Shown here: positions 2,036 to 64,000 of the stretch, one piece after another
Numbering within the stretch: position 1 is the first letter of the stretch
Layout: each line of letters starts with the position of its first letter
Source: Magnolia sinica
Taxonomy: Eukaryota; Streptophyta; Magnoliopsida; Magnoliales; Magnoliaceae
NCBI RefSeq assembly: GCF_029962835.1
Contig: NC_080583.1
Coordinates: 69,239,158 to 69,303,157, forward strand
DNA length: 64,000 nt
Reading direction: 5' to 3'
The notes under the pieces: generated by a model
Database searches by the model: none
Told to the model about the DNA's origin: nothing
The model's input: the letters and a program-made list of their open reading frames with translations, nothing else
Position numbers and translations under genes: made by a program

Positions 2036-2207
2036 GTTTGAGGTGAACCTGATTTGAAACCTCTGGTTTGAGGTGAACCTGTTGTGAAACCTCCGTTAGT
2101 GAGATCTGGTACACTCAAGGGTTGAGTGCGTCCACCGGAAGTAGAGTAGACAAGTAGTTGAACCATTATAAAAATACCTGTGTTTGAGATTGTTATTTTC
2201 TTCTATT

Positions 2208-2645
2208 CACTACAAGAAAAGGGGGTTTTAGCCTCGATTCAAAACTGTGGCTAAAAAGGTTAAAAACTGAGGCTAAAGCCTTTAGCCTCAGTTTTGCCTC
2301 AATTATCCAAACCGGGGTTGAAACCCCGGTGGCTAAAGGCTTTAGCCTCAGTTTTAGCAACCGAGGCTAAAATGATTTTTATAGCCTTGGTTCTTCAAGT
2401 GAGGCTAAAAATCTTTTTAGCTTCAATTTTCTCGAAATGAGGCTAAATCAAAATTTTAGCCTCCATTGTTTTCAACTGAGACTAAATCCAAATTTTAGCC
2501 TCAATTGCCTCCAACTGAAGCTAAATCTATTTTTAACCTCGGTTCTCAACAACCGAGGCTAAAGCCTTTAGCCACGGGAATTTCAACCTTGGTTATCAAC
2601 AACCGAAGCTAAATTCAAGCCTCAGTTACAAATTGAGGCTAAAAA
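2208..2645 (+). repeat. CACTA left terminal repeat and subterminal hairpin repeats
   Basis: After the 13-bp terminus come about ten degenerate copies of ttttagcctc(g/a)gtt...aac(c/t)gaggctaaa. Each is a short inverted repeat. In En/Spm elements, subterminal repeats of this kind bind the element's own TNPA-like protein. These copies are more diverged and less regular than the array at the other end. Confidence 0.85.
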
Positions 2646-2789
2646 TATTTTTTTGTTTTTTTAAATATTTATTTAAACTACTAATCCATTCATTTAACCT
2701 ACTCATGAAACAATCAATCATGAAAGCCACAATACCAACAAAATAGTTAACAACAGTCTATTTAAAGTTTAACTCAATCAAACTGTTAC

Positions 2790-3000
2790 ACAGCATTAGG
2801 TTCCACAAAAAATACAAAGTCATGGTCGCGCCTGTCATCACCGGTGCCGTCGTGCTTGGCGGACCTTGAGATAACACTGCCCGTCCATCTTCTGCTGCTT
2901 CCAGGCCAACATCATCATTGCCTCCACCAACATTCTCCATTCGAATTGTGCGTAGCAGGCCCTGCAACCTCAACAGGTAGCTCAGGCCTACTGGCTGCAA
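2790..3000 (-). pseudogene. Possible captured coding fragment, unidentified
   Basis: On the minus strand a GC-richer stretch directly downstream of the PHD-gene exon 3165-3222 reads AASRPELPVEVAGPATHNS from about 3001 before a stop. The base composition and location suggest a further captured exon of the same gene, but I do not recognise the protein segment and cannot fix splice sites. Confidence 0.3.
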
Positions 3001-3164
3001 GACATGAAATGAAAACTCTCAAATATGAAATGAAATGCAGATGGATGCGTGTAGGGAAAGGAAAGAGTAAAATTGAGAGTTGGAAGTGCTGGAAAGGAAA
3101 CCCAAAAGGAGGACCGATAATGAATGAGAAAATAGACAAGATGTGGATTATAGTACATTCTCAC

Positions 3165-3222
3165 TGACCCGGATTTGCTTAATGCAGCGGACCTCATCAG
3201 GTCCATGTTGCAGACTCTCTAC
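3165..3222 (-). pseudogene. Captured exon of a PHD-finger protein (segment after the ePHD)
   Basis: This 58-bp minus-strand segment is bounded by an AG acceptor (3224-3223) and a GT donor (3164-3163) and encodes VESLQHGPDEVRCIKQIRV. It resembles the helical segment that follows the extended PHD finger in plant Jade-like PHD proteins, from memory of that family rather than an alignment. It lies in the correct order after the ePHD exon at 3340-3493, so the two were probably captured as one genomic piece. It is a fragment with no start and no intact gene around it. Confidence 0.55.
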
Positions 3223-3339
3223 CTATAGAAATTGATAAAAACCAAGATGAGGTAGGAGAAATAAACTTATGCATTGTAACATAAGACTTTTATCCTATGA
3301 AAGACAATGCATCATAAGATATTCATTCTTCAAAAGCAA

Positions 3340-3493
3340 TTGATATGACCTTCTTTTTCTGATCCAAGCTATGCTTTTCACAATAAGCCTTGTCCTGAAA
3401 AAACTTGCCTCCACCAGTCTTCACATCCATGTGCAGGCCAACACATTTAGCACAAGTAGGATGAAATGCAGTTTGACAGTCATCATGATTACA
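3340..3493 (-). pseudogene. Captured ePHD zinc-finger exon of a PHD-finger protein
   Basis: The exon starts right after an AG acceptor (3495-3494) and reads CNHDDCQTAFHPTCAKCVG, then LHMDVKTGGGKFFQDKAYC and EKH. The Cys/His spacing C-x4-C-x4-FHPTCA...YCEKH is the second half of an extended PHD finger, a chromatin-reader fold in Jade/trithorax-type proteins. Only this half is present; the preceding zinc-binding half is not found nearby. The frame is open across the exon and runs on to a stop near 3323. It is carried inside the CACTA element and cannot make a full protein. Confidence 0.75.
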
Positions 3494-4369
3494 CTGCAAG
3501 ACAGTTGAAGGTAGGGTGAAGCAAAGCAAACAACATAAAGTCTACCTCTCATTTTTGGAGTCAAACCTACAGAATTTTAAAGAAGAAAACAAATGATTAA
3601 GCAAGCCAAACCTTTATGCAGACACCGTGTTTGCGACCGTAAATGCAACAAACAAGCAAGTCTCTTTCCTTTGAAATGGTCTCCTAAGGTGAATCATTTA
3701 ATACAGTGTAGATATTACATGAGAATGTGTAATGTTTTCAAAGTAAATTCAAAAATAAAATAAAATTACATGAGCAGTTAAAACTTCAAATTAGAACAGT
3801 TCTACATACAAGAACCATGGCATGTGAAACAAACTTAAAAGTAAATGGAGGAAGCAGCATCAAAAAGAATCTTTTGGGAAAGCAGCGTTAAGTTTAAAAA
3901 CACAGTTACCATTCCCCCAACAGGATTTGGTTGTCCCCTTTTAAATGTTGACTCTAGCACCCACTATAATAGACCGAATTGTTCAGTCTCAGGTCAAGTC
4001 GCAACTTGCCCTGTGTTGAGGGTGATGCATCATGTAAAACTGGATCAAGTCTTACCATGTATCAGGTACCGTATTGTACATCACTAATATAGCAACCTGG
4101 ATCGGGTTGTTTTGGGCCGATACAGCCGTATAATTAATGGGCAATATCAGCACATATCAAGCGATACGTACCCATTTAGGATGATACTTGTAACCTTGGT
4201 TGCACGAGACTCAGCTGAGTCCTAAAACCTTGCTATGAACACATGTATGCAATTAGTGGATGGTGCTTATATGCATACATGATACTTGTACAGGTATGCA
4301 TGGATGGTGCATGATGGGTACAAATCAAGGGCACATGAACGGAGAGAAAATAAAGAGTTTCAGTTGTAC

Positions 4370-4438
4370 CGGGAGGAATGCCAACACATAGCTCGCCTTC
4401 GATGTTGAGTGGGTGAATGATTGCTTCTTCCAGGACCT
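4370..4438 (-). pseudogene. Putative captured exon, unidentified
   Basis: A 69-bp minus-strand stretch lies exactly between an AG acceptor (4440-4439) and a GT donor (4369-4368). It encodes VLEEAIIHPLNIEGELCVGIPP with no stop, preceded in frame by a stop in the presumed intron. The flanking DNA is AT-rich and intron-like. Clean splice boundaries and biased composition suggest a third captured exon. I do not recognise it confidently; a loose resemblance to the segment before a Walker A motif in AAA ATPases was noted but is not enough for a call. Confidence 0.4.
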
Positions 4439-4829
4439 CTTAAAACCTCTTGAAATCATAAAAACACAAACACACACACAAAAGTAACTTGAATTAACTA
4501 ACTAGCCAAACTGAGAGCCGAGGATGGGAAAAGACACCAAGAAAAGAAATTACTAGAATATCTCAAATCAATGACATGGGAGCCTTAAAAAAAAAAACAA
4601 AATAAATAAAACCAGGAGCCTAACCATTGTAAATACTCCCATAGTAATACTTCCATTGTGATTTTCTGAAGTTCAGGAGCTTTTCAACTTTCTTCTAAGA
4701 AACCATAAGCATTGTCATATGGAAGCAGGTATGTACAATCCTTTTGATCCCATAGTAATACTTTCTTCACTGTTAATAGAATAGTACACTTCAGAACTAT
4801 TGCAACACCAAAAGCGGGAAGAAAGGATG

Positions 4830-4835
<6 letters not shown>

Positions 4836-4880
<45 letters not shown>
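4836..4880. repeat. (AT)n microsatellite
   Basis: About 22 consecutive AT dinucleotides lie in the presumed intronic part of the captured DNA. Ile-Tyr-rich reading frames across it are artefacts. Confidence 0.95.
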
Positions 4881-4884
<4 letters not shown>

Positions 4885-5130
4885 GTGTACATGCCATTTC
4901 CCTTCATGTTTGCAAACCAAAATTGGGCCTAATTAGAAATCCTTTCTAATTTGAAGAATTGACGTTATAAAATTGTAAAAGAATCGAAGGTAAATCTTCA
5001 TACAATTTGAGCATGCTAAAGTAAGAAGAGGAGATTACCTCTATAATTCCACCACAAAGCCAACCAAAAGACAAGTAGTGATACAGTTGCTCGCTCCCAG
5101 GTTCAGTTTCAGGGGTTTCTGTAGCAATAC

Positions 5131-6158
5131 GATTCACCATTGAAATTCAGGTTCCTCAGCAATTTAAAAAGCTTCTGCTTTTCCTCGGCAGATTGTGCTC
5201 CATAACCCTAGCAATTATGTTCAAATTTAAGATAAATAAAATAAAAATAGAAAAGGAGAAATGATATTCCAGTTTCTGGGTTAATTTAGAACCATCATCA
5301 CATTCAAAGGGGTTTATAGCTATGACAGGTAGAGCAGAGGCATGCCCACCCATCATTCAAATTGTAGAACACCTGTGTCAATGCTAGAAATGCTAGCAGA
5401 TGCTATCAACTAGAAGCGACAAGGATAGCAACATGGCTTACAATACCATCCCATATCACACATATCCACATTGTCAAAACGGTACAATAAATATGAAATT
5501 CAAACTGATACCAAGTACACATAGTGTATCAACCTGTACATGCCAATACACATTGGTTACAAAACGTTCTGACATGTGCAGCAAACAATAAACATTCTGA
5601 TTCAATTAAAGCGAGTATTCTACTACCAAATCCCTAATTGAGCCAAAATTCCTATTTTGAAGTTCATGTAAAACCAGTAGTGCACTCAAACGGTCCTATA
5701 ATCATGAAAGGTGAATATCTGCAAGCATAGTAATCCAAATTGCAGAAGAATGTGCAATGCAACAGTAAGGATAGCAACATCAACATCAAGCACACAAATA
5801 ATTCCAGAAAATAATTAAATAAAAAGAGACAGATCACATAAATGATGCAGTATGACAACAAAACCATAACCAACCCATTAATGAAAATTAAATTAAAAAC
5901 CAAATAATTTCAATAATTCCATAAATCTAAGGGGGAAAAGGAAGAGGAAAATGAGGGGAAGTGCTATACTTGAATGAGGAGATTGGGAAGGAGGCGATGG
6001 TCGATCCCAGTCGAGGCCAATGGAGAAGCCAGATGCTGTAACCCAGCGGACTGGAGCCACTGTGCCATGACCGCATCACCTGTGTCACTACTTACAGGCC
6101 CCGCATCGTACAGAGCGGCCGCCGCTGCAGCATTGCTCTGATGCATTTGGCCACCCAT
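5131..6158 (-). pseudogene. KIN13A: Captured kinesin-13A N-terminal exons 1 and 2
   Basis: Exon 1 (6158-5970) begins MGGQMHQSNAAAAAALYD and continues with GDAVMAQWLQSAGLQHLASP and ends LLIQ at a GT donor (5969-5968). Exon 2 (5207-5131) starts after an AG acceptor with GYGAQSAEEKQKLFKLL then RNLNFNGES. Both match the N-terminus of plant kinesin-13A, an internal-motor microtubule depolymerase acting in Golgi distribution and trichome or wall patterning; this is recognised from family knowledge. After GES the frame breaks and the similarity ends, so the motor domain is absent. An upstream in-frame ATG at 6191 would add 11 residues, but family members start at MGGQM. The fragment was transduplicated by the CACTA element. 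Confidence 0.88.
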
Positions 6159-6710
6159 GCGGCGCTGCTGCGCCCGGCGTTGCGGCGCCAATTTTTAAAA
6201 ATCAAATGTAACCACTGCAAAAACTTTAAAAATTAAAAAATATTCGAAATGAAAAGGACGGAAAAATCTCAGATACAGCAAAATCGCGACGCGATACTCA
6301 CAAAGGAGGTGAGAAATAAGAGATCGAGCAGAACAACAATTTCTCTCCAAAACCTCGAGATTTAAACCCGCCACATCTGCGAATCCGATCCAGGAGACAG
6401 AAATGTAAGAGATTCGATTCGAATCTAGTCCTAATCCAGAAATAAATAAAAATGCACACAAAAGAAAAAGGATCAGAACCGTTCCAAAGAAAAACGTTAC
6501 CAAATTCTCATGATCGATCGAAGTATTTTCAGAGATCTGTGAATCTTCAAGAATTTGAAGCAGATTGGAGAGAAATCTGAGGAAAAGGGAAAAGAAACCC
6601 TAATTTCAATGAAATGCAAAGGGTTTTTGATCCTCTTTCTTTCTTTCCTTCGCTCTCTGCAATTTCTAGAGAGAGGATTGCAGAGCCTGCACGCCCGAGG
6701 AGGCCCTGAT
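6159..6710 (-). promoter_or_regulatory. Captured 5' UTR / promoter-proximal DNA of the kinesin-13A copy
   Basis: Upstream of the kinesin start on the minus strand lies a CT-rich, leader-like sequence (for example 6540-6660, ttgatcctctttctttctttcc on +). It contains ctctctgca and aggaagaaa-type blocks as in plant 5' UTRs, and a possible leader intron. This suggests the capture included transcription-start DNA. No TATA box could be placed with confidence. Confidence 0.4.
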
Positions 6711-7579
6711 ATAATAATATCCTTTGTTTATGTGAGAAAGAGGGAGGGATATGAGTTTCTGGGATTTGATATTTACACCCTTCCAAATGGTTGGTTGCAC
6801 CACTTCTTCTACAAGGGTAATTTTTTCATGGAGGGGAATTATTTGATACTCTGGCAGAGTATGGCACTTGATACACATGCAGTACAGGTCACGTACATTA
6901 ACTCAAACTAAAGCAAATGGATTGTGGATCCCACCGAGAAATCATAAACTATGATTCATGGAAACTTGTTCGTTAAAATAGGATTATTGGATATTTTCAT
7001 TTTTAACCGTCCATTAAATGTCCACTAATCTTATGGTCAGGTTACCAAAAAGCTTATTTTTTTTGTTCATGATATATCTAAATAGGGATCCTTGATTTGG
7101 ATGGTTTACTTTGAATTAATTATATGCCACGTTGTGATTTCTAAGTACCTGCGTATTATCCATTGCACTCTGCCAGAGTATTAAAGTGTTTCTCGACGAA
7201 GAATTGTACTACGCCGCGAGAGGCGCGACATGAGATTCACCAGCAAGGCCAATGTAGGCACGGCGGGGATCCACCAAGGTGGGTGGATCCTGACTGTGGA
7301 TCCCACTGTGATGTATATTCCTTAAATCCACACCGTCCATCCATTTTTCAAGATCATTTTAATTAGATATCCAAAAAATGAAGAAGACAAAAATCTCAGG
7401 TGGAACACATGTTGAATTTGCCTAATTTAATTGGAACCAAGAAAAGAGCTAGAACGGTCCAGAACATTGTGATTTTTGGAACATGGCCCATTCATTATTT
7501 TATCATGAAATGGGTGGTTTCAATTTGATTAGACTGAGCAATGTCCAGAGGGAACATGGCCCATTCATAAAAAATTAGG
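6711..7579. other. CACTA interior without recognisable gene
   Basis: No open frame of interest is present. It includes a GC-rich patch (7190-7290) and a piece of the dispersed 'ccatccatttttcaagatcatttta' repeat (7330-7370) that recurs at 53330-53960. It may be flanking genomic DNA captured with the kinesin promoter. Confidence 0.5.
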
Positions 7580-8691
7580 CCTTTCACCTCGGTTCCTATG
7601 TAATTGAGGTTAAAATGTAAACTTTTGGCCTCGGTTCCTATGCAACTAAGGCTAAAAATTACACCTTTCGCCTCGGTTCGTATGGAATTGAGGTTAAAAA
7701 GTAGACCTTTCGCCTTGGTTCTTATGCAACTGAGGCTAAAAAGTAGACCTTTCGCCTCGGTTCCTATGCAATGGAGGCTAGAATGTAGACCTTTCACTTC
7801 GGTTCCTATGCAACTGAGGTTAAAAAGTAGACCTTTCGCCTCAGTTCCTATGCAAATGAGGCTAAAAAGTAGACCTTTTGCCTCGGTTCCTATGCAACTG
7901 AGGCTAAAATGTAGACATTTTGCCTCGGTTCCTATGTAACTGAGGCTAAAAAGTAGACCTTTCGCCTCGGTTCCTATGCAACTGAGGCTAAAAAGTAGAC
8001 CTTTCGCCTCGGTTCCTATGCAACTGAGGCTAAAATGTAGACCTTTTGCCTCGGTTCCTATGTAACTGAGGCTAAAAAGTAGACCTTTCGCCTTGGTTCC
8101 TATGCAACTGAGGCTAAAATGTAGACCTTTCGCCTCGGTTCCTATGCAACTGAGGCTAAAATGTAGACCTTTCGCCTCGGTTCCTATGCAACTGAGGCTA
8201 AAAAGTAGACCTTTCCCCTCGGTTCCTATGCAACTGAGGCTAAAAAGTAGACCTTTCGCCTCGGTTCCTATGCAACTGAAGCTAAAAAGTAGACCTTTCG
8301 CCTCGGTTTCTCTGCAAGTGAGGCTAAAAGTAGACCTTTCGCCTCGGTTCCTGTGCAACTGAGGCTAAAAAGTAGACCTTTCGCCTCGGTTCCTATGCAA
8401 CTGAGGCTAAAAGGTAGACTTTTCGCCTCGATTCCTCTGCAACTGAGGCTAAAAAGAAGACTTTTCGCCTCGGTTCCTATGTAACTGAGGCTAAAAGGTA
8501 GACTTTTCGCCTCGGTTCCTATGCAACTGAGGCTAAAAGGTAGACTTTTCGCCTCGGTTCCTATGCAACTGAGGCAAAAGATGAACTTTCAGCCTCAGTT
8601 CCTTAGCAACCGAGGCTAAAAGACACATTTAGCCTCCATTTTTTCAACTGAGGCTAAAAAACTGTGGCTAAAGGCCTATTTTCTTGTAGTG
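7580..8691 (-). repeat. CACTA right subterminal array: about 25 units of 42 bp plus terminal repeat
   Basis: The 42-bp unit is gcctcggttcctatgcaac followed by tgaggctaaaaagtagacctttc, repeated almost perfectly from about 7580 to 8580, with three diverged units before the terminus. Each unit contains an inverted repeat, GCCTCgGTT...AACtGAGGC, so the array can form a string of small hairpins and offers about 50 half-sites. Because 42 is divisible by 3, both strands show long open frames (such as 287 residues on minus from 8358), which are artefacts. Confidence 0.93.
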
Positions 8692-8694
8692 ATT

Positions 8695-8964
8695 GCTTGT
8701 GTGATTTCCTTAAATGTTTTCATATTTGACTATCTGAGATCACACCTCACACACAGTCACATCCATCATAAACTATGATTTGCATCTTGTTTATCTTTTA
8801 AATAGTTTTATGATTGGATCCTCTATCCGGCTTGGAAGCTATTAGAGTTACTTTGAAGAAATCCTGATGCATGCATATTTTCTCAGGATAAGATTGATAG
8901 GATTTTAAATTATCATAAAATATTAAAAAGTCCTATTCACCCCTCTCTATGACATATTGGCACA
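8695..8964 (+). repeat. Copia 3' LTR, second part
   Basis: The LTR interrupted at 2207 resumes here. It contains aaaagtcctattcacccctct at 8929-8948, the text that precedes the 3' end of other Copia LTRs in this window (compare the reverse complement of 26470-26500). It ends near ggcaca; 8970 (ccca) is an alternative end. No primer-binding site follows, as expected for a 3' LTR, and Tat gag sequence begins immediately after. Confidence 0.6.
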
Positions 8965-13499: not shown

Positions 13500-14945
13500 A
13501 ATATCTAATTTCAATTTATCAAACCTGTTTTTGTTAAGTGGTTTTGTGAAAATGTCTGCAAGTTGATTTTCAGTTTGAATATAATCCAATAAAATAGTCT
13601 TATCTTCTACTAATTCACAAATATAATGATATCTAATGTCAATATGTTTAGTTCGTGAATGCTGGATTGGATTTTTAGAAATGTTGATTGCGCTAGAATT
13701 ATCTCAATATAAAGCCATAGAATCTTGCGCAAATCTGTAATCATTTAACATCCTCTTCATCCACATAAGCTGAGTGCATGCATTACTGGCTGCAATATAC
13801 TCAGCCTTAGCTGTGGAAAGTGATACAGAACTCTGTTTCTTACTATGCCATGAAACTAGACAGTTCCTGACATAAAAACATCTACTGCTGGTAGACTTGC
13901 GATCATCAATATTACCAGCCCAATAAATATCTGTATAACCAGCTAATTGAACATTGGTATCATGTGGATACCAAAGACCAAGATTGGCCGAACTTACGAC
14001 ATATCTCAAAATACGCTTAACAACAATCAGGTGGGATTCTTTAGGGTCAGATTGATATCTAGCACAGATTCCTACACTGAATGCAATATCAAGTTGGCTC
14101 GCAGTTAAATATAATAAACTACCTATCATACTACGATACAACTTAGGATTTACACGTTTACCTGTTGAATCCTTAGAGAGCTTAAGTGTCGTACTTATAG
14201 GATTATCAAAATTTTTACCGCTTTCGAATCCAAACTTTTTTACCAAGTTTAGGGAATACTTGGTTTGAGAAATAAAGATCCCATCTTCAAGCTGTTTCAC
14301 TTGCAAACCTAAAAAATAATTCAGTTCTCCAACCATGCTCATTTCAAACTTGGACGTCATCAAATCTACAAACTCAACAGACATATTAGAACAAGTAAAT
14401 CCATAGATAATGTCATCAACATATATCTGTACTATCAGTATGTGATCATTGTATTTTTTTTTACAAACAATGTCTTATCAACACTCCCCATTACAAAGTT
14501 ATGACTCAGTAGAAACTTAGTCAATTTCTCGTTTTAATCCATAGAGTGCCTTTTTTAAGGCGATAAACATGATCAGTATGTTTAGGATCTTCAAAACCAG
14601 TAGGCTATTCTACATATACTTCCTCATATAGATCACCATTCAAGAAAACACTCTTGACATCCATTTGATAGATTTTGAAATTTTTGTGACAAGCAATGGA
14701 TATGAACAGTCTAATAGATTCAAGACGAGCTACTGGGGCAAAGGTTTCATCATAATCGATGCCTTCTATCTGAGTGTACCGTTGTACAAACAGTCTAGCC
14801 ATGTTTCTTATAATGTTACCTAATTCATCAGACTTATTTTTAAAGATCCATTTAGTTCCAATAATATGTTTATCATTAGGTCTTGGAACTAAGTACCATA
14901 CATCATTCCTTATGAATTGATTAAGTTCATCATGCATAGCCACTA
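13500..14945 (-). pseudogene. Copia pol: reverse transcriptase and RNase H
   Basis: The minus-strand block 14943-14605 holds the RT start ([16 protein letters not shown], then [14 protein letters not shown] and [20 protein letters not shown]). The YVDD catalytic motif is intact at about 14400-14425, followed by MSMVGELNYFLGLQVKQ and MIGSLLYLTA. RNase H follows (SKKQSSVSLSTAKAEYIAAS). Breaks include frameshifts between about 14450 and 14605 and an in-frame TGA (13704-13706), after which the RNase H tail with a FTKPLNK-type end continues to about 13510. Typical Ty1/Copia RVT_2 organisation; integrase and everything upstream is deleted. Confidence 0.9.
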
Positions 14946-45814: not shown

Positions 45815-47801
45815 TATTGTTATTGTTTCATGTGTTGCGGCTTCATTCATATTCTCCTCTTCCTCCTCATCAAGATCATAACGTCCTAGACTCGGATGCA
45901 ACCAATCTTGTATACAAATTAATGCTTCCACTGTATCTAGTGCAAGGAAACTTCTAGTCTTGCTCACGACCCTACTCCTTGTGCTAAAAGAAGATTCCGA
46001 TGCCACGGTTGAAATAGGAACTGACAAAATATCTCGTGCCATCGTCGATAGTGTAAGGTATTTTCCTTCACTAACTCTCAATTTCCACCACTCCAAAATA
46101 TCAAACTTTAAATCCTGTCGTAGCATAACTGACTCTTTAAGATACATGTCTAACTCTGATTCTTTCGTATCTGTGTTTGTATTTTCTTTTGCTAAGAAAG
46201 ACATGTAATGATCATCGAAGCTTGAAGCAACATGTGATCTAACTTCAGAAGCACTTGGTGTGGACACTGTGGTTGTGTACGCCTTATACAATGCTTCGAT
46301 TGTGTCACGAACCCTCGAGGTTTCAGATATTGCATTTTCATCCTCATGAAGATGTACGTAATATAACTCATCTTGCACTGAGGATCAAGAACAATAGCAA
46401 AGGACATTATCAAATGACAATCATCCCAGTACTTATCGAACTTCATTTACAACTACTTGTCATGATTTGGAGAAAAAATGGACCGTCATCAGCAGCTTTC
46501 TTCAGGGCATCCTTGATCTTCCACACATCAAGAAGAAACATATTTGCTGTAGGAAACTTATTGCCAGAAAATATTTTCGTACAGTCATAAAAAAACCTTT
46601 AAAATTTTGTAAACTTCTTTCGCTTTGCTCCAATCATCTTCAGTAGGCAACCAAGCATATGTTCTATCATGCGCTGCATATTCTAGAAATGCATGTTCCA
46701 ATTCCAAGGCTGAATCTAACATCTCAAAAGTCAAATTCCAACGTATGCATACATTTAACTTCAGCGTTTTTGGAGACTTCAAATTCAAACATTGGACGAT
46801 GTCATTCCATATACTTAATCTTGACGGTGAGCCTCTTATATACTTCATACTCTCCCTCACATTCTCTATAGTTTGGTCAATTAATTTCAACCCTTCTTGT
46901 ACAATTAAGTTGAGAATGTGTGCATAACGCCGAGCATGAAATATTTTTCTCTCAAAAAATAAATTGTTGATTGCCTTAAACTAGTTACGTAAGAATGATA
47001 TTACACTGTCATTTGTCGAAGCATTATCTAAAGTTAATGAACTAACTTTTTTTTAATGCCTCAATCTCGTAGACAGTTGTAAATGTAATCTGAAATAATC
47101 AAACTGGAATAGGGAGGTGGAAGGTGGCGAAAGTTCAATATTCTCTTGCAAAGTTTTCAATTTTCATCAACATAGTGTGCAATCAATAAAATGTAACCGT
47201 TTCTTTGATTTTACGCCGTCCACATATCAAATGTCAAACTTACCCTTGAAACCGAATCTAAAACTACTTTCAGCTTCATTTTCTCACTGGCATACATCTT
47301 CATGCACTTCCTCTTCACAGTAATACGGGAGACCTTCTCAAACTGAGGATTAAGGAATTTACTGTATCCCATAAATATTTCACACTCTACCATCTTAAAT
47401 GGCTACTCATCAATGATAATAATCTTTACAAACCACTCCTTCAGCTTCCCTTTTTCAAACTTATGAGTGGTAAGTGTACCTTCAGAAGCAGATCCTTCAG
47501 ACTTTATAAATGATAACAATTGTTGGCCTGAAGGTGGAAGTATAGGTCTCCTTGCACAACTTTGTATATGTCTATTTAAATGAGACGTCAACCCCTCGAC
47601 ACTTTTGGTGTATAGACTTTTGCAGTGCAGACATCTGATCTTGGTGACATTGTTAATTACTACTTCTTCAAAATCATCCCAAATAGCTGACCTTTTTTTT
47701 CCTTTATTTGTAGTTGAAGACCCCTCTCCCTCAACAACAAATGGTGATGTGGCTGAGGCACCGGCACCAGGGGTAATTAGGACTTCATCCTCACTAGCCA
47801 T
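45815..47801 (-). pseudogene. hAT transposase, decayed
   Basis: The N-terminus MASEDEVLITPGAGASATSP is followed by a BED zinc finger (IRCLHCKSLYTKSVEGLTSH, then LNRHIQSC). Next comes the first catalytic Asp region VSLTFDMWT (about 47215), the RW block LNVCIRWNLTFEMLDSALEL (about 46750) and the C-terminal hAT dimerisation domain (46378-45812). The last contains YLTLSTMARDILSVPISTVA, SESSFSTRSRVVSKTRSFL and the catalytic Glu in VEALICIQDW. The acidic tail EEEEENMNEAATHETITI is present. Stops or frameshifts near 47400, 47210, 46585 and 46400 disrupt it. It resembles plant RICESLEEPER-like hAT proteins. Confidence 0.9.
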
Positions 47802-59611: not shown

Positions 59612-62600
59612 GGACCTCACCCTTAACCTATAACCTAAACCTATTCTCAATTCCCAAAACCTATAACTACAACTTAAACCTTAACCTGAACCTATAACCT
59701 ATGACCTATAACCTATAACCTATAACCTAAGCTCAATTCCCTAAACTTTAACCTACAACCTAACCTAAACCTATCCTTATAACCTAAACCTATTCTCAAA
59801 TCCCAAAACCTAAAACCTAAACCTATAACCCATAACCTGAACCTATAACCTAAACTCAATTCCCTAAACCTTAACCTATAACCTAACCTAAACCTATACT
59901 TATAACCTAAACCTATTCTCAAATCCCAAAACCTATAACTATAACCTAAACCTTAACCAAAAACCTATAACCTAACCTAAACCTATAACCTAAACCTTAA
60001 CCTAAACCTAAACCTATAACCTAAACCTAAACCTAAACCTAAACCTATAACCTAAACTCAATTCTCTAAACCTCAACCTACACCCTAACCTAAACCTATT
60101 CTCAAATCCCAAAACCTATACTTATAACCTAAACCTAAACCTTAACTTATAACCTAAACCTATACTTATAACCTTAACATAAACTTATAACCTTAACCAA
60201 AACCTATTCTCAAATCCCAAAACCTATACTTATAACCTAAACCTTAACCTATAACCTAAACATATACTTATAACCTTAACTTAAACCTAAAACTTAACCT
60301 ATAACCTAACCTATAACCTATAACCTATAACCTAAACTCAATTCCCTAAACCTTAACCTATAACCTATAACCTAAACTATAACATATAACCTAAACTCAA
60401 TTTCCTAAACCTTAACCTATAACCTAAACACAATTCCCTAAACCTTAACCCATAACCTAACCTAAACCTAAACCTATAACCTACACTTATATCCTAACTA
60501 TAATATAAACCTAAAACCTAAGCCTAAAACCCAAACGTAAACCCGATCCCGAACCCGAACCTGATTTCTAAAACCTAAACCTTAACCTATTCTCAATTCC
60601 CTAAACTATAACCTAAATCTAAACCTAAACCTTAACCTATTCTCAATTCCCTAAATCTATAACCTAAATCTAAACCTAAACCTTAACCTAAACCTATAAC
60701 CTAAACCTATAACCTATAACCTAAAACCTAAACTTAAACCTAAAACCTAAACGTATTCTCAAATCCCTAAACCTAAACCTACACCTAATCTTAATCTCAA
60801 ATCCCTAAACCTAAACTTACACCTAATCCTAATCTCAACTCCCTAACCTAAACCTAAACCCGATCCCGAACCCGAATCTGAATCCCTAAACCCTTAGCCT
60901 AAACCTAAACCTAAACCTAAACCTATAACCTAAACTTAATTCACTTAAAACCTACACCTTAACCCAAACACATAATCCAAACCCGAACCTAAACTCGAAT
61001 TCCTGAACCTGAACCTATAACCTATAACCTAAAACCTAAACCTATTCTCAAATCCCAAAACTATAACTATAACCTAAACCTTAACCTAAACCTATAACCT
61101 ATAACCTAAACTGAATTCCCTAAACGTTAACCTATAACTTAACCTATAACCTAAACTTATACTTATAACCTAAACCTATTCTCAAATCCCAAAACCTATA
61201 ACCTAAACCTAAACCTTAACCTAAACCTATGACCTACAACCTGAACCTATAACCTAAACTCAATTCCCTAAACCAATTAACCTATAACCTAACCTAAACC
61301 TATACTTATAACCTAAACCTATTCTCAAATCCCAAAACTTATAACTATAACCTAAACCTTAACCAAAAACATATAACCTATAACCTAAACTCAATTCCCT
61401 AAACCTTAACCTACACCCTAACCTAAACGTATACTTATAACCTAAACCTATTCTTAAATCCCAAAACCTATAACCTATAAACTAAACCTGAACCCGAACC
61501 CGAATTCCTAAACCTAAACCTATACTTATAACCTAAACCTATACTTATAACCACAACCAAAACCTATTCTCAAATTCCAAAACCTATACTTATAACCAAA
61601 ACCTTAACCTATAACCTAAACCTATACTTATAACCTTAACCTAAACTTATAACCTTAACCAAAACCTATTTTGAAATCCCAAAACCTATACTTATAACCT
61701 AAACCTTAACCAATAACCTAAACCTATACTTATAACCTAAACCTTAACCTATAACCTAAACCTATACTTATAGCCTTAACCTAAACTTCTAACCTTAACC
61801 TAAACCAAAAACTTAACCTATAACCTAACCTATAACCTATAACCTATACCTATAACCTATAACCAAAACTCAATTCCCAAAACCTTAACCTATAACCTAT
61901 AAACTAAACTCAATTCCCTAAACCTTAACCTATAACCTATAACCTATAACCTATAACCTAAACAAAATTCCCTAAACCTTAACCCATAACCTAACCTAAA
62001 CCTAAACCTATAACCTACACTTATAACCTAACTATAATCTAAACCTAAAACCTAAGCCTAAAACCCAAACGTAAACCCAATCCCGAACCCGAACCCGAAC
62101 GCGATTTCCTAAACCTAAACCTACACCTAATCCTAATCTCAACTCCCTAACCTAAACCTAAACCTAAACTTGAAAACCCAAACCTAAACCCGATCTCGAA
62201 CCCGAACCCGATTTCTTAAACCTAAACCTTAACCTATTCTCAATTCCCTAAATCTATAACCTAAACCTAAACCTAAGCCTATAACCTAAACCTAAACCTT
62301 AACCTATAACCTAAACCTAAACCTATACTTGAAAACACAAACCTAAACCCGATCCCGAACTCGAACCCAATTTCCTAAACCTAAACCTTAACCTATTATC
62401 AATTCCCTAAACCTATAGCTTATAACCTAAACCTAAACCTTAACCTAAATCTAAACCTAAACCTTAACTTAAACATAAATGTAAACCTATAACCTTAACC
62501 TAAACCAAAACATACGACCTAAAACCTTAACCTATAACCTACAACCTAACCTTAAACTAAACCTAAAACCTAAACCTTAACCTATAACCTAAAACCTAAA

Positions 62601-64000
62601 CCTAAACCTAAAACCAAAATGTATTCTAAAATCCCTAAACCTATAGCTTAAAACCTAAACCTAAACCTCAACCTCAACCTAAACCTAAACTTAAACCTTA
62701 ACCTATAACCTATAACCTAAACCTAAACGTAAAACCTAAATGTATTCTCAAATCCCTAAACCTAAACCTATACCTAATTCAAATCTCAACTCCCTAACCT
62801 AAACCTAAACCTAAACTTGAAAACCCAAACCTAAACCCGATCCTGAACCCAAACCCGATTTCCTAAACCTAAACCTTAAACTATTCTCAATTCCCTAAAC
62901 CCATAGCTTATAACCTAAACCTAAACCTAAACCTATAACCTATAACCTAAACCTAAACCTAAAACCTAAATGTATTCTCAAATCCCTAAACCTAAACCTA
63001 CACCTAATCCTAATCTCAACTCCCTAACCTAAACCTAAACTTGAAAACCCAAACCCAAACCCGATCCCAAACTCGAACCCGATTTCCTAAACCCAAACCT
63101 TAACCTATTCTCAATTCCCTAAACCTCAACCTATAACCTAAACCTTAACCTAAAACCTAAATGTATTCTCAAATCCCTAAACCTAAACCTGCACCTAATC
63201 CTAATCTCAACTCCTCAACCTAAACCAAAACCTAAACTTGAAAACCCAAACCCAAACCCGATCCCGAACCCGAACCCGATTTCCTAAACCTAAACCTTAA
63301 CCTATTCTCAATTCCCTAAACCTATAGCTTATAACCTAAACCTAAACCTAAACCTAAACCTTAACCTAAGCCTAAACCTAAACCTATAACATATAACCTA
63401 AACCTAAACCTTAACCTAAGCCTAAACCTAAACCTGTAACATATAACCTAAACCTAAACCTGAAACCTAAATGTATTCTCAAATCTCTAAACCTAAACCT
63501 ACACCTAATCCTAATCTCAACTAATTAACCTAAACCTAAACTTAAACTTGAAAACCTAAACCTAAACCCGATCCCGTACCCAAACCTAATTTCCTAAACC
63601 TAAACCTAAACTTGAAAACCCAAACCTAAACCCGATCCCGAACCCGAACCCCGGATTTTCTAAACCTAAACCTTAACCTATTCTCAATTCCCTAAACCTA
63701 TAGCTTATAACCTAAAACCTAAACCTAAACCTAAACCTTAACCTAAACCTAAACCTAAACCTATAACCTATAACCTAAACCTAAACCTATAACCTAAATG
63801 TATTCTCAAATCCCAAAACCTAAACCTACACCTAATCTTAATCTCAACTTCCTAACCTAAACCTAAACCTAAACTTGAAAACCCAAACCTAAACCTGATC
63901 CCGAACCCGAACTCGATTTCCTAGACCTTAACCTTAACCTATTCTCAATTCCCTAAACCTATAGCTTATAACCTAAAACCTAAACCTTAACCTAAACCTA
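59612..64000 (+). repeat. Degenerate telomere-like array, C-rich strand on +
   Basis: Continuous cctaaa, cctataa, cc(c)taaa and ccttaa words run to the window edge. Canonical CCCTAAA appears mostly singly, within 'attccctaaacc' and 'aatccctaaacc'. From about 60530 and again from 62030 longer units appear, marked by 'cccgatcccgaacccgaacc', 'gatttcctaaacc', 'tattctcaattccctaaacc' and 'aaatgtattctcaaatcccta'; marker spacing in the last 2 kb ranges from roughly 60 to 310 bp (often 200-310). The words are those of the plant telomere C strand but too degenerate to be telomerase-maintained. Confidence 0.9.

What the first reader, a model, noticed from the sequence alone, without database searches (positions are those of the whole stretch)
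2208..8691. Intact multi-gene Pack-CACTA carrying kinesin-13A and PHD-finger exons
Termini, 3-bp ATT duplication and subterminal arrays are all intact, and the interior holds spliced-gene fragments from at least two unlinked host genes in the same orientation, with introns and probable promoter DNA. It shows gene shuffling into one potentially transcribed unit: kinesin N-terminus upstream, PHD exons downstream. The good preservation of exon 1 and its splice site suggests recent capture.
Basis: partly seen in the sequence, partly recalled or inferred. Interest (0 to 1): 0.75.

Follow-up and report, generated by a model that had tools for sequence, protein, structure and literature searches.

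The report
Jumping gene carrying three gene pieces
A cut-and-paste transposon in a magnolia genome has picked up pieces of three unrelated genes, including a kinesin's promoter and first exons, and spread them to several chromosomes; it is a well documented example of a known kind of gene shuffling.

Summary
Window 2208-8691 is an intact CACTA element (CACTACAAGAAAA termini, ATT duplication, subterminal arrays) in a genome that contig lengths identify as Magnolia sinica. Six other places hold the same set. Sister subfamilies share the PHD capture but carry other genes, so capture was probably stepwise. 11 of 11 copies with a recognisable 3' end (of 20 fetched) have matching 3-bp duplications; empty sites exist. 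Capture is not recent: copies differ from each other as much as from the donor, and the kinesin exons decay neutrally. The kinesin frame stops six codons past the junction (95 aa). NCBI lists the matching 95-aa protein of one sister copy, and a chimeric splice form of another, as 'KIN-13A'. A 249-aa in-frame KIN-PHD form by exon skipping is possible but unproven. New member of the Pack-CACTA kind; interest modest.

The parts
2205..2207 (.). target-site duplication ATT, left
   Evidence: 11 of 11 sister copies with a recognisable 3' end have matching 3-bp duplications, 10 different sequences among them
8692..8694 (.). target-site duplication ATT, right
   Evidence: empty sites
2208..2220 (+). 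5' terminal inverted repeat CACTACAAGAAAA
   Evidence: 27-bp arms 85% complementary
8679..8691 (-). 3' terminal inverted repeat
2221..2680 (+). 5' subterminal repeats (TTTTAGCCTC...GAGGCTAAA; 39-bp array 2394-2527)
2681..3119 (-). unassigned stretch shared by the 20 fetched sister copies; holds a possible last exon at 2994-2758 behind a TTGCAG acceptor
   Evidence: no Pfam match
3120..3972 (-). captured fragment of the extended-PHD gene LOC131242526 (four exons with introns)
   Evidence: 95.1% over 853 columns to C4 (L042); protein 92%
3910..3963 (-). PHD exon WVLESTFKRGQPNPVGGM
   Evidence: AG/GT intact
3612..3683 (-). PHD exon ETISKERDLLVCC...
   Evidence: AG/GT intact
3350..3493 (-). PHD exon CNHDDCQTAFHPTC...
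   Evidence: AG/GT intact; PF13771
3169..3222 (-). PHD exon VESLQHGPDEVRCIKQIR
   Evidence: AG/GT intact
   Evidence: 90.1% over 1214 columns (82 gap positions) to C9 (L040 1473-2652); donor exons give PF00144 at 1.8e-17, the captured pieces alone only 0.012, below the cut-off
5039..5136 (-). ABC1K first exon piece (NRIATETPETEPGSEQLYHYLSFGWLCGGIIE), GT donor intact; AG before 5118 used as acceptor in one NCBI model
4370..4437 (-). ABC1K second exon piece (VLEEAIIHPLNIEGELCVGIPP); original 3' splice site lost by a deletion shared by 5 of 6 copies compared
5130..7409 (-). captured fragment of KIN-13A: promoter/5' leader, exon 1, intron 1, part of exon 2
   Evidence: 94.3% over 2282 columns to C17 (L039 293-2565)
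5970..6158 (-). KIN-13A exon 1 (63 codons), GT donor intact
5130..5207 (-). KIN-13A exon 2, cut off at the junction with the ABC1K fragment
7570..8660 (+). 3' subterminal array, 42-bp unit, 26 copies

Best explanation
It is a non-autonomous CACTA (En/Spm-type) transposon of the Pack-CACTA kind. Shown: intact ends, 3-bp duplication, genomic (not spliced) fragments of three genes on three other chromosomes, colinear sister copies, sibling subfamilies that share the PHD fragment but differ in the rest, and empty sites. Inferred: a transposase encoded elsewhere cut and pasted it in trans; the PHD piece was acquired first, then the ABC1K and KIN-13A pieces by aberrant excision or repair with short microhomology, followed quickly by a burst of copying. 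The kinesin promoter can drive minus-strand transcripts of which the plain form gives a 95-aa truncated kinesin peptide; splice variants join kinesin exon 1 to ABC1K or, if exons are skipped, in frame to PHD. The element itself is decaying, the kinesin part neutrally.
For: TIR and TSD; matching TSDs in 11 of 11 sister copies with a recognisable 3' end, of 20 fetched; empty site: 40 of 40 scored hits (5266 candidates) run unbroken, 91-93%, across the joined flanks. Donors: KIN-13A C17, ABC1K C9, PHD C4; the kinesin gene is seen to go on beyond the captured exon 2 end, the ABC1K gene on both sides, the PHD gene on its upstream side. Sister copies: 7 places, the window included, hold the full kinesin piece beside ABC1K and PHD; the window and four others were read whole or nearly so. 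Single PHD capture: in 18 of 20 copies the match ends at the same donor base, in the other two within 8. Subfamily B holds PHD plus LCAT-type and RFC1 pieces. CACTA transposase domains abound: 150 matches scored (1669 candidates), those listed all over the cut-off; none in the 14 control genomes. Chimeric gene models: P0190 equals the C7 copy's two exons, and P0194 equals the C16 copy's kinesin exon 1 joined to the ABC1K piece.
Against: No RNA or small-RNA data were available; NCBI models may be computed without full transcript support. No autonomous partner with these exact ends was identified. That PHD came first is inferred; loss and replacement of ABC1K/KIN-13A in the other subfamilies is not excluded. 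PHD exons show fewer amino-acid changes than expected (39 N: 23 S against an N fraction of 0.761, P = 0.024; 62 coding events against 79.9 expected; stops 3 against 3.9), and lie closer to the donor than its introns do (pooled 3.2% against 4.6%), which pure neutrality of the element does not predict, though selection on the donor's side of the branch contributes to the latter. The C17 kinesin lacks 6 bp in exon 2 that the element keeps, so the donor allele was slightly different or another copy.
Confidence: 0.95

Rival explanations
1. The element is becoming a new gene: exon skipping yields a 249-aa protein of the KIN-13A N-terminus, the second half of the extended PHD finger and an element-encoded tail, kept by selection.
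For: All six pieces join in phase 0, with GT after kinesin exon 1, AG/GT around the PHD exons and an AG before the tail exon in the window copy, 249 codons open; pieces open also in L009 and L012; shortage of amino-acid changes in PHD exons, P = 0.024.
Against: Broken in 2 of 5 copies that could be read (L010: one acceptor lost and a stop in the tail; L014: stops in kinesin exon 1 and in a PHD exon); kinesin exons neutral; the one chimeric model seen (P0194) is out of frame with ABC1K and ends at 88 aa.
Confidence: 0.05
2. The captured pieces act as a source of small RNAs that dampen the parent KIN-13A and PHD genes.
For: Long stretches 94-95% identical to the parents, multi-copy, with inverted-repeat ends.
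Against: No small-RNA data; among the 25 longest of 37 inverted pairs shown, none was an inverted duplication of the captured exons.
Confidence: 0.15
3. Retrocopies (processed pseudogenes) of the genes inserted into a CACTA element.
For: None beyond the presence of exons.
Against: Introns and promoter align to the donors.
Confidence: 0.005
4. Chance juxtaposition of gene fragments by segmental duplication, later flanked by two CACTA ends.
For: One junction shows short microhomology.
Against: The same composite sits on several chromosomes; the three copies of it besides the window with a recognisable 3' end (L009, L010, L014) have their own TSDs, and empty sites exist.
Confidence: 0.01

Closest known systems
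Pack-CACTA elements of Arabidopsis, rice and maize (Pack-TYPE; PMC8903248, passages and one section read; Catoni 2019 seen only as cited there and in PMC13317346, not held)
   Same: CACTACAA-type termini, TSD, no transposase, host coding DNA from several loci in one element; maize Pack-CACTA hold the most distinct loci
   Different: Here the three donors, their ends and sister subfamilies with different further captures were traced in a magnolia; no mobilisation was shown
Tgm-Express1 of soybean (PMC1947982, abstract read)
   Same: 5.7-kb CACTA with five unrelated gene fragments whose exons and introns are used in chimeric splicing
   Different: Not shown to sit in a host gene's intron here; transcription would start from a captured kinesin promoter; only database gene models support it
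Pack-MULEs and gene-carrying Helitrons (recalled; mentioned in passages)
   Same: Shuffle gene fragments, some expressed as chimeric transcripts
   Different: Other termini, other TSD length or none (recalled)

Membership tests
CACTA (En/Spm) superfamily | CACTA... terminal inverted repeats | tested here: met
   CACTACAAGAAAA at both ends
CACTA (En/Spm) superfamily | 3-bp target-site duplication | tested here: met
   ATT; 11 of 11 sister copies with a recognisable 3' end; empty sites
CACTA (En/Spm) superfamily | subterminal repeats | tested here: met
Pack-CACTA | carries host-gene DNA with an identifiable donor | tested here: met
   three donors
Pack-CACTA | no transposase of its own | tested here: met
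   captured DNA fills 3120-7409; longest stop-free stretch 134 codons in the parts translated (minus strand 2640-6800, plus strand 2640-7560); no transposase match in the pieces scanned (and the array frame); not every frame was scanned
Pack-CACTA | multi-copy, mobile as a unit | tested here: met
   past movement only
Pack-CACTA | moved by an autonomous partner with matching ends | tested here: inconclusive
   PF02992 domains abound but ends were not matched
Expressed chimeric element (Tgm-Express-like) | chimeric spliced transcripts | tested here: inconclusive
   NCBI models P0190, P0194 match sister copies; no reads seen
Processed pseudogene | introns absent | tested here: not met

The most novel reading that the evidence does not exclude
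A CACTA element has built a chimeric gene from a captured kinesin promoter and first exon that, by skipping the out-of-frame exons between, expresses an in-frame 249-aa kinesin N-terminus / PHD / transposon-tail protein which at least some copies keep intact.
Probability: 0.05. Interest if true: 0.6.

Novelty: new member of a known kind. Interest (0 to 1): 0.3.

Why it matters
It is a clean natural record of gene capture: one capture (PHD) shared by several subfamilies, different further captures in each, and all three donors of this element still present in the same genome. That allows the order, the junctions and the fate of captured exons to be studied. It also warns annotators: two NCBI 'KIN-13A' proteins of M. 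sinica match sister copies of this element.

Tried and rejected
Recent capture: rejected on copy-to-copy and copy-to-donor divergence. Retrocopy origin: rejected by introns. An in-frame three-gene fusion read straight through kinesin exon 2: rejected, because the kinesin frame stops 6 codons past the junction. C2:3373253 as kinesin donor: it matches only 469 bp (5134-5602) where C17 matches 2282 columns; but it shares with the element 6 bp missing from C17, so it is kept as a caveat. A 29-base longer PHD match in sister copy L019 was first taken as a sign of a once longer capture; on reading the bases it is T-rich and may be chance, so it is dropped. A first N/S count on the PHD exons (ratio 0.58) had one exon in a wrong frame and is replaced. 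Identity of 2681-3119: no Pfam match, left unassigned. PDB searches with the kinesin N-terminus and the ABC1K exon gave nothing usable. No dating with a measured rate; roughly 2% change per lineage means millions of years at usual plant rates (recalled). A tree of the kinesin pieces has one well-supported inner branch of five and places the donor among the copies, so its branching order is not used.
Full report
What is there. Window 2208-8691 is bounded by CACTACAAGAAAA and its reverse complement, flanked by ATT on both sides, with subterminal repeats at both ends: a 39-bp array at 2394-2527 and a 42-bp array of 26 copies at 7570-8660. The window lies at C11:69239158-69303157 of a 1.84-Gb genome. 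Its contigs C17 (73,752,208), C2 (140,208,898), C4 (116,114,175) and C16 (73,967,413) have the lengths given for contigs of Magnolia sinica proteins (against 25, 37, 60), so the species is inferred to be M. sinica.

Three captured genes. (1) KIN-13A: window 7409-5130 aligns colinearly, 94.3% over 2282 columns, to C17:11058692-11060964, covering 1.25 kb upstream of the ATG, exon 1, intron 1 and the start of exon 2. The M. sinica KIN-13A protein matches that locus 100% over exon 1 and continues in exon 2 beyond the captured end. I recall this as the ABC1K/beta-lactamase protein type of Arabidopsis AT5G24810; that name comes from no call. (3) The PHD gene: window 3972-3120 aligns at 95.1% over 853 columns to C4:14399944-14400793, on the contig of LOC131242526, whose protein is 92% identical over the 108 captured residues; four exons with AG/GT sites are present. 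The PHD exons form the second half of an extended PHD (PF13771; Jade-1 and peregrin structures by sequence). All three lie on the minus strand.

Junctions. Between kinesin and ABC1K the donors share TGA(A/G)TCG, seven bases with one difference. The ABC1K/PHD junction falls within about ten bases of the WVLE exon's start.

Copies and order of capture. The first 1001 bp had 1320 candidates in the genome, of which 40 were scored; 23 places, the window included, match at least 96% of the length at 90-100% identity. I fetched 20 of these. Seven places hold the full kinesin piece, the window included: the window, L009, L010 and L014 (with insertions) were read whole and L012 up to the place of 8397, while C7 and C15 were seen only through search pieces. 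C10 holds a fragment across the kinesin/ABC1K junction. Of the 20 fetched, 12 share only 2208-3431 (within a few bases, one lacking its first 39) and then carry other DNA; L024 shares up to 3379, L017 to 3891, L019 to 3972 and L011 to 4486. In L021 the other DNA includes a stretch with an LCAT match (PF02450, 1e-5; PDAT type, recalled) and one matching replication factor C subunit 1 (3.4e-11); seven other places match all 2901 bases searched and more match parts (40 of 440 candidates scored). L017 and L019 share another 259-bp module. In 18 of 20 fetched copies the PHD match ends at the same donor base and in the other two within eight. So the PHD capture happened once, before the subfamilies parted; that ABC1K and KIN-13A were added later in this line is the simplest reading, not proven.

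Mobility. Of 20 fetched copies, 11 have a recognisable 3' end (26 bp with up to four substitutions) in the stretch held, and all 11 show matching 3-bp duplications, 10 different sequences among them; in 9 no 3' end was found. The window insertion sits in a dispersed repeat: 40 of 40 scored hits (5266 candidates) run across the joined flanks at 91-93%; the query held one ATT, and hit bases at the joint were not read singly. The element has little room for a transposase, and CACTA transposase domains are plentiful in the genome (150 matches scored of 1669 candidates), so movement in trans is the natural reading; the partner was not identified.

Age and constraint. The seven full kinesin pieces are 95.2-96.7% alike and 95.5-96.5% like the donor (the partial C10 piece is 97-98% like the others and 97% like the donor); 23 of 1536 sites separate all seven from the donor, 31 are shared by some, and each copy has 15-29 private changes: capture followed soon by a burst, then long independent decay. 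In the kinesin exons of 8 copies (C10 included, C2:3.37 left out), 29 amino-acid-changing and 17 silent events agree with the neutral expectation from non-coding changes (P = 0.53). In PHD exons of 21 copies 39:23 is a shortage (P = 0.024, uncorrected; 62 events against 79.9 expected; stops 3 against 3.9), and exons lie closer to the donor than introns do (3.2% against 4.6% pooled). The one-base 'frameshifts' listed come from an alignment column opened by one insertion in L021. The expectation is rough, so I do not read this as proof of selection, but it stands against full neutrality of the PHD part.

Possible products. The kinesin frame runs 89 codons and six more into ABC1K, then stops: 95 aa. 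NCBI holds a 95-aa M. sinica 'kinesin-like protein KIN-13A', 94% identical to the window's and identical to the two exons of the C7 copy, and an 88-aa 'isoform X2' in which exon 1 of the C16 copy is joined to the ABC1K piece at the place corresponding to window 5118. These are gene models; whether reads support them was not seen. A third form, exon 1 joined to the four PHD exons and the 2994-2758 exon, is open for 249 codons in the window copy. Its pieces are open in L009 and L012 and broken in L010 and L014. In window, L009, L010, L011 and L012 a deletion removed the ABC1K second-exon acceptor that L014 keeps.

Literature. Pack-CACTA elements with several captured loci are known in Arabidopsis, rice and maize (PMC8903248: passages and the section 'Genes captured'), and are treated in the review PMC13317346 (passages); soybean Tgm-Express1 carries five gene fragments that are spliced as exons (PMC1947982, abstract). 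A search for papers that hold both 'Pack-TYPE' and 'Magnolia' found none; other searches were (listings only). I make no wider claim of absence.

Verdict. A confirmed, well preserved but not recent Pack-CACTA, with one more gene than reported. New member of a known kind, worth noting for its traced donors, its shared and separate captures, and its appearance in databases as KIN-13A.

Noticed in passing
window 59621-64000: Over 4 kb of degenerate telomere-like repeat (AAACCT and variants), interstitial: about 16 Mb from the end of an 85-Mb contig.
   Followed up: no
window about 2008-2207 and 8695-8894: The flanks belong to a dispersed repeat with 5266 candidate places in the genome, 40 scored.
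   Followed up: partly
window 7495-8358, minus strand: A 287-codon open frame runs through the 42-bp array, whose unit is 14 codons long; Pfam matches only below cut-off.
   Followed up: partly
window 6848-7190: A possible small inverted-repeat element (ACTCTGGCAGAGT ... ACTCTGCCAGAGT, seen by eye) lies in the captured kinesin promoter; the colinear match to the donor runs through it.
   Followed up: no
window 45815-46378 and 47406-47801, minus strand: hAT dimerisation domain (PF05699, 1.9e-28) and a BED zinc finger (PF02892, 1.4e-4), perhaps pieces of one hAT transposase gene.
   Followed up: no
window 13707-14384, minus strand: Piece resembling a reverse transcriptase (PF07727, 2e-6, below cut-off).
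   Followed up: no
L021 1500-4400: Sister Pack-CACTA subfamily with LCAT-type and RFC1 exons; partial matches at C2:11342813, C17:72092132 and C6:10513181 could be donors or relatives.
   Followed up: partly
L041 (C2:3372300-3374200): A second KIN-13A-like locus with exon 2 and part of intron 1, without the 6-bp loss of the C17 gene.
   Followed up: partly
window 3432-3490 and genome: 14 places match only this 59-bp start of PHD exon CNHD (or 55 bp of it) at 95-100%, and two more a shorter part; two of them lie beside a copy of the same 5' end, suggesting a further deletion subfamily.
   Followed up: no
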